Origin: Kribbella turkmenica
GTDB taxonomy: Bacteria > Actinomycetota > Actinomycetes > Propionibacteriales > Kribbellaceae
Assembly: GCF_004348725.1 (NCBI RefSeq)
Contig: NZ_SMKR01000001.1
Location: forward strand, 1-64,000
Length of the DNA: 64,000 nt
Direction of reading: 5' to 3'
A program made the translations under genes and the position numbers. The notes below the pieces were generated by a model that was given only the letters and a program-made list of their open reading frames with translations, searched no databases and was not told the DNA's origin. Below, one piece after another: positions 13,643 to 15,588 of the stretch. Position 1 is the stretch's first letter; each line of letters opens with the position of its first letter.

Positions 13643-14096
13643 GGCAGTCCTCGGGAGTGCGGCGTTCTTCTTCGCCGCGCCGTGTGTGGTGGGCGGTGTG
13701 ATCCCGTGGTGGATCAGCGGCTGGGCCGGACCGCGGTTCTGGCCCGGGCTCGTCCTGGTCGCCGTTGGGGCCTCCGTCGTACTGCGGGCGTTCGTGCGGT
13801 TCGTCCGGGAAGGACGCGGTACGCCGGCGCCGGTCGCGCCGACCGAGGAGCTCGTGATCGGCGGCGACTACCGCTTCGTCCGCAACCCCATGTACGTGGG
13901 GGTGGTGACGGCGATCCTCGGTCAGGCGCTCACCTTCCTGGACCTCGTCGTTCTCGGGTACGGCGTCGTCGCGTGGGCCGTGATGGCGTCCTTCGTCCGG
14001 TGGTACGAGGAACCCCTCCTGCTGCGACGGTACGGCGCTCGGTACGAGGACTACCGGCGGACTGTCCCGGCCTGGGTGCCGCGACTCAGACACTGA
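13635..14096 (+). CDS. Isoprenylcysteine carboxyl methyltransferase (ICMT/PEMT)-like membrane protein
   Basis: A 153-residue integral membrane protein of the ICMT/phospholipid methyltransferase type. About four membrane segments precede the signature GGDYRFVRNPMYVGVVTAILGQAL (SAM-binding RNPMY) and the C-terminal YEEPLLLRRYGARYEDYRRTVPAWVPR, with the conserved Glu-Glu and R-Y-G-x-x-Y-xx-Y pattern. Bacterial members methylate unknown small molecules or lipids; true prenylcysteine is unlikely. The start is GTG at 13635, overlapping the end of the marR remnant. An intact marR plus this enzyme would be a recognisable pair, so its control may have been lost. It ends inside the convergent gene (11-bp overlap). 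Confidence 0.8.
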   Translation: MLKAVLGSAAFFFAAPCVVGGVIPWWISGWAGPRFWPGLVLVAVGASVVLRAFVRFVREGRGTPAPVAPTEELVIGGDYRFVRNPMYVGVVTAILGQALTFLDLVVLGYGVVAWAVMASFVRWYEEPLLLRRYGARYEDYRRTVPAWVPRLRH

Positions 14097-14631
14097 CCGG
14101 CCGACCGTCGGCGTCGCGGAACAGGCCGACCGCGAGCGAACCGCGGTGCAGGATGTGCGGGATGTCGGCCCAGGGGAACAGTGGCTCGGTCGCGCTCAGA
14201 TTGCGCAGTCGCTCGAGCGCCTTGTCGGACGGTGTGGACAGGGTGGCGACGGTGGTCGCGCTGTACGGGAGGTAGTCGGTGGCCGGCTGTGGGCGGAACA
14301 AGGGGTCGTGGCGCTTGAGCAGGATGCAGGTGCGCTCGGGATCGAGCAGGTCGGCGTCGAGGGTCCAGTAGTCGAGAGCGGCCGGCCCGATCCGGCCGGA
14401 CTCGCGAAGGGCGTCGAAGATCGGCGCCGGATGGACGGGGGACAGGAAGACCACGTCGCGCCAGCGGCAGCCGAGCGGATGGACCGGGTTGTCAATCGTC
14501 TGCGGACGGTACGAGTACTTCCCGGCCTCCCGCTCGTAGAGGTCGGGGTGCTGCTCGCGGAGCAGGTCGAGCGGCAGGATCTCGGTCCCGCGGAGGTCGT
14601 GGATGGCGGCTCGGTAGAGAAGTGTCGGCAT
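14086..14631 (-). CDS. Conserved-looking protein of unknown function
   Basis: I do not recognise this 181-residue soluble protein. It has a compact globular look with many aromatic and proline residues: YRAAIHDLRGTEILPLDLL, YSYRPQTIDNPVHPLGCRWRDVVFLSPVHPAPIF, DYWTLDADLLDPERTCILLKRHDPLF. There is no signal peptide or membrane segment. The ATG at 14631 is supported by a GGAGG nine bases upstream, but that GGAGG is locked in the 3' arm of a strong hairpin (14639-14671), suggesting regulated translation. The last 11 bases overlap the convergent methyltransferase gene. Confidence 0.8.
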   Translation of the reverse strand: MPTLLYRAAIHDLRGTEILPLDLLREQHPDLYEREAGKYSYRPQTIDNPVHPLGCRWRDVVFLSPVHPAPIFDALRESGRIGPAALDYWTLDADLLDPERTCILLKRHDPLFRPQPATDYLPYSATTVATLSTPSDKALERLRNLSATEPLFPWADIPHILHRGSLAVGLFRDADGRPVSV

Positions 14632-14638
14632 ACGAAAG

Positions 14639-14671
14639 AGCCTCCGAGTGCGGGAACCCGCACCGGAGGCT
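14639..14671 (-). promoter_or_regulatory. Hairpin that sequesters the ribosome binding site of the 14086-14631 gene
   Basis: On the minus strand AGCCTCCG-GTGCGGG pairs with CCCGCAC-CGGAGGCT around a two-base loop: 15 base pairs with one bulged base. The 3' arm contains the GGAGG that should act as Shine-Dalgarno for the ATG nine bases later. The stem is far too stable to melt spontaneously, so translation should need a trans-acting factor or ligand, unless it acts mainly as a terminator. Read on the plus strand it has no T-tract. Confidence 0.6.
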
Positions 14672-14739
14672 GCCCTTCATTCTACCGGCCGGACGAGTCG
14701 GCCGGCCAGTTCTCTGCGTGGCTGCAAAGTCTCACAGCT

Positions 14740-14768
14740 AACAAATTTGCAGTGAGTGCAAGTTTGTT
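14740..14768. promoter_or_regulatory. TetR-type operator before a degenerate tetR
   Basis: AACAAATTTGCA and TGCAAGTTTGTT flank five bases (gtgag); 11 of 12 positions pair. The AT-rich arms and the position 36 bases before the tetR-like frame fit the autoregulatory operators of tetR-MFS pairs. The site survives although the regulator downstream is broken. Confidence 0.65.
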
Positions 14769-14803: not shown

Positions 14804-15419
14804 GTGCGGGAGCGGAAGTAGCGCGAGACGCGGGCGGCGCTGGCCGAGGCTGCCTTGCGGCTGGCGTTGGAGAAGGGCGCGGACAACGTCACCGTCGAGG
14901 AGATCGCCGAGGCGGCGGACGTATCCGAGCGGACTTTCCTCAACTACTTCCCGCACAGGGAGCACGCGATCCTCGGGCGCAACCCCGAGCACATGGAGCG
15001 CGCGCTGGAGCGGCTGCGGACCGCGCCCGCCGGGGAGTCGCCGCTGACCACGATGTGGCACGTGGTCAGCGAGGTGCTGGCGGACCTCGAACGCGACGGT
15101 GGGCTGTCGCCGCGGCGAGCTGATCATGAGCTCGCCGAACCTGCTCTACCAGCTGATGATGTCCAGCTTCGACGACGAGCGGCAGCTGACCGCCGCGCTG
15201 GCCGGGGCGGATGGGCGAGCCGGCCGGCTCGGTGCGTCCGGCCCTGGTCGTCAGCACCGCCGGAGCCGCCTGCCGGGTGGCGATGGAGCTGCACAAGGCC
15301 TTCCCGGACCGATCCGTCCGCGACCTGGTCGCCGAGGCTTCCACCTACTTGCCGAGGGCATCGACCCCGCCTTCGGTCCGGCAAGTACCAGCGAACCGAC
15401 GACGAAAGCTCACTCATGA
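14804..15419 (+). pseudogene. Degenerate TetR regulator of a drug-efflux pair
   Basis: The coding trace starts at the GTG at 14804 but meets a TAG at 14819. In the same frame it continues RETRAALAEAALRLALEK through the helix-turn-helix (VTVEEIAEAADVSERTFLNYFPHREHAI) to about 15110. It then moves to the next frame for ELIMSSPNLLYQLMMSSFDDERQL, to a third for GEPAGSVRPALVVSTAGAACRVAMELHKAFPDRSVRDLVAEA, and back for LAEGIDPAFGPAS, ending at the TGA at 15419. One nonsense codon and about three frameshifts make it non-functional unless base errors explain them. The end overlaps the MFS remnant start by ATGA, the original operon arrangement. Confidence 0.8.
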
Positions 15420-15588
15420 CAACGACCTCGTCACCCTCCCCGTCGCCGGAGAACGTCGCCGGAGGACGTCGCCGGCGACGCCGCGGGTGAGGTCCCTCGT
15501 CGCGATCCTCTTCATCAAGGAAAGGGCCCTCACCACCTCGGCGGCCGAACGCCGGGCCGCCGAGGAGCCTGACATCCTGGACACATGA
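15416..15588 (+). pseudogene. Remnant of an MFS efflux transporter with its membrane core deleted
   Basis: The ATG at 15416 overlaps the stop of the degenerate tetR and begins MTTTSSPSPSPENVAGG, a typical N-terminus of EmrB-type 14-TM exporters. After about 24 codons that frame stops. In another frame a short hydrophobic end follows (VRSLVAILFIKERALTTSAAERRAAEEPD, stop at 15588), which looks like the last helix and cytoplasmic tail of such a transporter. About 450 residues between are gone. The C-terminal scrap overlaps the start of the next gene by 4 bp. Confidence 0.6.

What the first reader, a model, noticed from the sequence alone, without database searches (positions are those of the whole stretch)
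14629..14680. Ribosome binding site locked in a 15-bp hairpin
The unknown gene 14086-14631 has its GGAGG inside the 3' arm of a 15-bp stem with one bulge and a two-base loop, ending about eight bases before the AUG. A second AUG starts just upstream of the hairpin in another frame (14680). Such strong occlusion implies translational control: a protein, small RNA, ligand, or translation of the upstream frame could open it.
Basis: partly seen in the sequence, partly recalled or inferred. Interest (0 to 1): 0.55.

Follow-up and report, generated by a model that had tools for sequence, protein, structure and literature searches.

The report
Promoter-hugging terminator hairpin before toxin-like gene
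A short RNA hairpin that looks like a transcription stop signal sits between a promoter and the start codon of a gene resembling DNA-modifying toxins in soil actinobacteria, and the same layout precedes several unrelated protective-type genes, hinting at an undescribed kind of off-switch.

Summary
The hairpin is real and conserved. The window is from Kribbella. The gene (181 aa, no family model) has a fold nearest to DarT ADP-ribosyltransferases. All 29 relatives with a readable 5' end, down to about 45% protein identity, keep one layout: a -10-like box, usually 8-9 nt, a GC-rich hairpin, a U-rich tract, ATG. In 1.26 Mb of Kribbella only the window gene passes the same test among 4,912 ATGs. 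Seven of 13 base pairs show two-sided changes. The AUG at 14680 is part of the -10 box and is not conserved. One relative keeps the hairpin without GGAGG.

The same layout precedes an MFS transporter, a GNAT acetyltransferase and an aldo/keto reductase, mainly in a Streptomyces-like genus. In the last, and in part of the GNATs, the gene starts further downstream with its own ribosome site.

Best reading: a promoter-proximal intrinsic terminator (attenuator) whose 3' arm doubles as the Shine-Dalgarno here, shutting off both transcription and translation. The leader is too short for a leader peptide or switching RNA, so it must be opened in trans; by what is unknown. Termination, the start site and enzyme activity are inferred, not shown.

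The parts
   Evidence: TANNNT at similar distance in 29 of 29 leaders
14671..14678 (-). predicted transcription start region, 6-8 nt after the -10 box, at the foot of the hairpin
   Evidence: inference from the -10 position; not mapped
14658..14671 (-). hairpin 5' arm
   Evidence: covariation
14654..14657 (-). hairpin loop (GUUC)
14639..14653 (-). hairpin 3' arm with bulged U at 14647
14641..14645 (-). GGAGG, the Shine-Dalgarno, inside the 3' arm
   Evidence: sequence; GGAG/GAGG at this place in 28 of 29 leaders
14632..14639 (-). U-rich tract UCUUUCGU between stem and start codon
   Evidence: terminator d-score 7.0
14086..14631 (-). 181-aa protein gene, ATG start at 14631, DarT-like ADP-ribosyltransferase fold
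   Evidence: second model

Best explanation
The element is a promoter-proximal transcription attenuator. RNA polymerase starts just before the stem, makes a hairpin plus a U-rich tract, and mostly stops about 40 nt after the start, next to the start codon. Any read-through mRNA has its Shine-Dalgarno locked in the same hairpin, so the toxin-like gene is shut at two levels. Only about 0-8 nt of RNA precede the stem, so there is no room for a leader peptide, T-box or riboswitch; opening must come in trans: a modified polymerase, an RNA-binding protein or a small RNA. Shown: sequence, conservation, covariation, terminator score, the same layout on other families. Inferred: start site, termination, silence, and the trigger.
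For: 29 of 29 leaders have -10 box, stem, U-rich tract and ATG, unique among 4,912 ATGs in Kribbella DNA. d-score >0 in 22 of 29 leaders against 1 of 3,546 background starts. Asymmetry towards the gene: mean 4.7 T in the 6 nt after the stem, 2.2 A in the 6 nt before it. Stem pairs covary, and basal pairs change on both sides in L019. The stem persists without GGAGG in L039. The layout recurs before MFS (30 sites), GNAT (21) and AKR (6) genes with strong terminators, median d 24-27. Where the gene starts further down with its own ribosome site, the promoter and terminator are still there. GAGGCTTTTTTCATG: 54 sites in 392 genomes against 0 for the reversed pattern.
Against: The window's own tract (UCUUUCGU) is interrupted, and 7 of 29 leaders have d<=0; in L023 most of the tract can pair back into the stem. 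The GGAGG at proper spacing is kept in 28 of 29, which a pure terminator would not need. The d-score formula is recalled and was made for E. coli. No RNA data: start site, termination and expression are unmeasured. Three of ten plasmid GNAT loci read had no hairpin with d>0. The Thioclava and phage TS-12 relatives of the protein have no such leader.
Confidence: 0.58

Rival explanations
1. Purely translational control: the hairpin hides the Shine-Dalgarno and the U-rich stretch is only an unstructured spacer.
For: GGAG/GAGG at proper spacing sits in the 3' arm in 28 of 29 leaders; stem -15.6 to -32.2 kcal/mol.
Against: L039 keeps the stem without an SD; the U-rich tract is at the 3' foot in nearly all; AKR and several GNAT genes keep hairpin and tract although their start lies further down.
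Confidence: 0.2
2. A 5'-terminal hairpin that protects the mRNA from decay; the gene is expressed steadily.
For: The stem lies at the predicted 5' end in all leaders.
Against: Protection would not need the SD in the stem or a U tract at a fixed place before the ATG; translation should suffer.
Confidence: 0.08
3. A minimal type III-like toxin-antitoxin: the terminated ~40-nt hairpin RNA itself binds and inhibits the toxin.
For: Toxin-like fold, no DarG-like neighbour seen, terminator before the toxin as in type III systems (PMC5086642, passages).
Against: No antitoxin repeats; the same hairpin type precedes MFS, GNAT and AKR genes, which need no antitoxin.
Confidence: 0.06
4. The hairpin ends transcription of an upstream gene and lies at the ATG by accident, or it is a DNA operator.
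For: Ordinary terminators followed by a chance ATG exist (64 of 122 sites were of other or no kind).
Against: In the window the upstream gene is divergent; a -10 box sits between in 29 of 29; G-U pairs and two-sided changes speak for RNA.
Confidence: 0.03

Closest known systems
Ribosome-mediated transcription attenuators of resistance genes (e.g. lmrC, PMC8546547; passages read)
   Same: a premature terminator between promoter and a resistance-type gene in an actinobacterium
   Different: lmrC has a leader with uORFs and an antiterminator fold; here the stem starts 4-17 nt after the -10 box, so neither fits
Type III toxin-antitoxin loci (toxIN and others; PMC5086642, passages read)
   Same: single promoter, intrinsic terminator directly before a small toxin-type gene
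   Different: no RNA repeats between promoter and terminator; the protein fold is ART-like; the same leader is on non-toxin genes
DarT of DarTG (PF14487; PDB 7omw, 7omy)
   Same: closest fold: VIA Z 9.0, 146 aligned, rmsd 4.4
   Different: no PF14487 or other Pfam match, no invariant Glu, no DarG-like partner seen, sequence profiles do not align
SD-sequestering 5' hairpins (thermometers, riboregulators; recalled)
   Same: SD inside a stem just before AUG
   Different: about -27 kcal/mol and followed by a U-rich tract; related leaders also occur where the gene start is elsewhere

Membership tests
Intrinsic (Rho-independent) terminator | GC-rich hairpin directly followed by a U-rich tract | tested here: met
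   window d 7.0; 22 of 29 leaders d>0, background 1 of 3,546; formula recalled
Intrinsic (Rho-independent) terminator | RNA 3' ends in the tract | not testable with these tools
   no RNA data
Leader-peptide (ribosome-mediated) attenuator | translated uORF ahead of the terminator | tested here: not met
   the only AUG ahead overlaps the -10 box; ATG there in 10 of 29 leaders
Riboswitch / known Rfam leader | match to a described RNA family | tested here: not met
   0 matches in the window at gathering; none over the leaders in 8 related loci
Type III toxin-antitoxin | tandem RNA repeats between promoter and terminator | tested here: not met
   4-14 nt between -10 box and stem in ART leaders
DarT / DarTG | DarT sequence family PF14487 | tested here: not met
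   no Pfam hit at E<=1; the PF14487 search gives no match in G000
DarT / DarTG | ART fold of the DarT type | tested here: met
   Foldseek E 1.4e-3, prob 1.00; VIA Z 9.0; second model weaker: Foldseek E 0.044, Z 8.5
DarT / DarTG | catalytic glutamate (E152/E160, PMC11543638 passages) | tested here: inconclusive
   no Glu among invariant or nearly invariant columns, but no residue-level superposition was possible
DarT / DarTG | adjacent DarG/macrodomain or NADAR antitoxin | tested here: inconclusive
   none in the 25 of 73 Pfam families shown for 104 flanking ORFs in 19 loci; none among the 13 PADLOC families

The most novel reading that the evidence does not exclude
A class of sensor-less attenuators in Actinobacteria: a promoter and a terminator only 4-17 nt apart silence toxin-like and protective genes (ART, MFS, GNAT, AKR), and one common trans-acting antitermination event, such as polymerase changed by a phage or an antibiotic, switches them all on. 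The ART would then be a toxin held off by its leader instead of by an antitoxin.
Probability: 0.25. Interest if true: 0.85.

Novelty: new variant of a known kind. Interest (0 to 1): 0.6.

Why it matters
Known attenuators carry their sensor in the leader. This one seems to have no room for a sensor, yet its geometry is kept across genera and recurs on four unrelated protein families. If termination is confirmed, it points to a trans-acting antitermination signal in actinobacteria and gives a ready reporter for finding it. It would also explain how a DarT-like protein without a visible antitoxin can be carried safely.

Tried and rejected
Leader peptide from 14680: rejected, the AUG is in the -10 box. 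Known Rfam family: none; L234 has a sub-threshold cobalamin riboswitch match on the other strand near the MFS gene, not at the hairpin. Genome-wide family of this exact hairpin: my first pattern had wrong spacing and found nothing; the covariance model found 24 strong places in 38 Kribbella genomes, 22 ART leaders and 2 decayed copies. Of the 9 rows with E 0.058-1, six were read: L139 (MFS) and L140 (GNAT) share the layout; L137, L138/L142 (one place) and L141 do not. Pattern GAGGCTTTTN{1,4}ATG in 38 Kribbella genomes: of 14 rows outside the ART leaders, only the MFS gene and its decayed copy share the layout. MFS relatives at about 45% identity show no such leader: 29 in Kribbella and 12 elsewhere, though in at least L147, L154, L206 and L210 the true start was not displayed. 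Sequence-profile link to DarT: none. PDB by sequence: no meaningful hit. The simple promoter/terminator scan found nothing in the region, as it needs a -35 hexamer and 5 T in 8. A thermometer was not tested. Literature: ten searches (listings, plus passages of PMC5086642, PMC11543638, PMC8546547, PMC10511110) showed no description of this layout; the library is open-access only.

Rows dropped before the count of 29: fragments L022/L045, L024, L025 (no 5' end); L026-L038 and L047 are the same genes as among L001-L020.

Full report
What is there. On the minus strand a -10-like TAGAAT (14684-14679) is followed after 7 nt by a hairpin (14671-14639: 14 pairs including the outer A-U, loop GUUC, bulged U14647), a U-rich tract and the ATG of the 181-aa gene at 14631. 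GGAGG is at 14645-14641 inside the 3' arm. The 59-nt leader folds at -30.9 kcal/mol, z -4.7; a longer 121-nt piece has z -3.4. The AUG at 14680 shares its A and T with the -10 box.

Conservation. A protein search of 38 genomes of the genus found relatives in 23; a named scan shows the genus is Kribbella and adds Flexivirga, Ornithinimicrobium, Microlunatus, Actinospica and a Geodermatophilaceae MAG. A sample of 394 genomes of the class gave only the window's own gene, so the family is rare outside Kribbella. I read the leaders of all 29 relatives whose 5' end is held (L001-L021, L023, L039-L044, L046). All 29 have TANNNT, a hairpin of -15.6 to -32.2 kcal/mol, a U-rich tract and ATG. The distance from -10 box to stem is 7-9 nt in 23 of 29 and 4, 4, 4, 10, 13 and 14 nt in the other six; it depends on how far outer A-U pairs are counted as stem. 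The stem sequence differs between genera (for example CCGUCGG/CCGACGG in L039, CCCUCG/CGAGGG in L041 and L043). On the 22 leaders of the genus set, 7 of 13 pairs show two-sided changes, 93.3% of cells pair, and 0 of 500 shuffles reach these values; sliding the partner by 1-3 columns drops pairing to 34-55% (similar). The sequences are related, so shuffles overstate the significance.

Background. In 1.264 Mb of Kribbella DNA (1.2 Mb of genome G009 plus the window), 4,912 in-frame ATGs of 1,561 ORF-like frames were tested; 11 had a hairpin <= -14 kcal/mol with 4 T in 8, and one of these also had a TANNNT box: the window gene. A terminator score (d'Aubenton Carafa form, recalled) is above 0 in 22 of 29 leaders and in 1 of 3,546 background starts. 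A looser rescan with TTG starts, shorter ORFs and gaps to 12 nt lists 7 starts with d>0, mostly what look like ordinary terminators. The Shine-Dalgarno (GGAG or GAGG) is in the 3' arm in 28 of 29; L039 has the stem but CGACGG instead.

The protein. No Pfam or PADLOC family, one weak NCBIfam and a few weak single PHROG matches. The AlphaFold2 model (pLDDT 89.7) is closest to DarT: Foldseek E 1.4e-3, probability 1.00, VIA Z 9.0 with 146 aligned at 4.4 A. A second model on the Microlunatus relative (pLDDT 87.1) gives DarT first again, weaker: E 0.044, Z 8.5. I call it DarT-like by fold, not a DarT. There is no invariant glutamate, while the DarT catalytic residue is a glutamate (PMC11543638, passages). 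It stands alone: among 104 flanking ORFs of 19 loci no macrodomain appeared in the 25 of 73 families shown. The family decays often: fragments in G009 and G015, an internal deletion in G020, and two genomes (G005, G002) where the gene is ruined but the leader is still recognised by the covariance model.

The same leader elsewhere. The covariance model built from the ART leaders gave, at E 0.058, the same layout before an MFS transporter in G036, and at E 0.31 a promoter plus terminator before a GNAT gene in G005; one search also found a decayed copy of the MFS gene with its hairpin in the window's own genome. Five of five close MFS relatives (70-78% identity) in another actinobacterial genus, probably Streptomyces, carry it, while none of 12 more distant ones displayed shows it, two of these not at a true start. 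The exact string GAGGCTTTTTTCATG occurs 54 times in 392 genomes of that genus and its reversed control 0 times; in 394 genomes of the class 16 times against 1. The looser GGSTTTTTTCATG gave 88 sites in 199 genomes against 3. Of 122 unique sites read: 30 precede MFS (30 with hairpin, 28 with TANNNT), 22 GNAT (21 with hairpin, 20 with TANNNT as well), 6 an aldo/keto reductase (all with both), and 64 are other, many of them ordinary terminators (for example after tRNA-like sequence), of which 4 have a TANNNT. So the string alone is not specific; the families are. Distance from -10-like box to stem is family-specific: about 10 nt in MFS, mostly 13-17 in GNAT, 14-16 in AKR. Protein families were checked with Pfam: MFS_1, Aldo_ket_red, Acetyltransf_1. 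A check that did not start from the string: of 17 plasmid records with the GNAT ten were read; seven have a terminator-like hairpin with d>0 upstream, 9 to 152 nt before the start used, and Curtobacterium L375 has the Kribbella layout, TAGACT-hairpin-UUUUCUUGU-AUG. L371, L372 and L373 did not pass.

What follows. In AKR and in part of the GNATs the gene has its own ribosome site further down, so occluding the gene's ribosome site cannot be the shared job; promoter plus terminator is. In ART, MFS and many GNATs the same hairpin also hides the Shine-Dalgarno. The simplest account is an attenuator with a double lock. The geometry leaves about 0-8 nt of RNA before the stem in the ART leaders, so classical sensing leaders are excluded unless transcription starts elsewhere. 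What opens it is unknown. That the four families are toxin-like, export, acetylation and reduction functions suggests a common stress, toxin or antibiotic signal; this is inference.

Against. The U-rich tract in Kribbella is modest, seven leaders score d<=0, termination is unmeasured, and the retention of the Shine-Dalgarno in 28 of 29 leaves room for a mainly translational reading. Relatives of the protein in Thioclava and in Stenotrophomonas phage TS-12 have no such leader; Cytobacillus is unclear. The leader is thus, on this evidence, an actinobacterial feature.

Noticed in passing
window 14819-14821 and 14855-15490 (+): The divergent TetR-type gene has an in-frame TAG near its 5' end, and Pfam matches only part of TetR_N; the gene looks broken.
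   Followed up: partly
window 14740-14768: Near-palindrome AACAAATTTGCAGTGAGTGCAAGTTTGTT between the two divergent genes, likely an operator of a TetR-type regulator.
   Followed up: no
window about 14685-14706: Inverted repeat of CCGGCC/GGCCGG type over the -35 region of the ART promoter; not seen in L002-L004.
   Followed up: partly
L192 (G000:C53:2295, own genome): Decayed MFS gene whose terminator-like hairpin and CTTTTCATG are still intact.
   Followed up: partly
L024, L025 (G009), L022 (G015), L023 (G020), L133 (G005), L134 (G002): Broken, deleted or residual copies of the ART gene; in L133 and L134 the leader outlasts the gene.
   Followed up: partly
L144-L172, L207-L217: More distant MFS relatives mostly share a TTTCGCCTCC..CGAAAC-TGTAGG-like sequence before the gene, probably another operator/promoter.
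   Followed up: no
L233, L294, L296, L333, L346, L360: After the terminator an ATGCCC starts short open frames of varying length ahead of the aldo/keto reductase gene; a second small inverted repeat follows in some.
   Followed up: no
L365 (Stenotrophomonas phage TS-12), L363 (Thioclava plasmid), L364 (Cytobacillus plasmid): Distant relatives of the ART protein, annotated as hypothetical or group-specific, in a phage and on plasmids.
   Followed up: partly
L234 1165-1316 (-): Sub-threshold AdoCbl riboswitch match (37.4 bits, cut-off 50) near an MFS gene with the leader.
   Followed up: no
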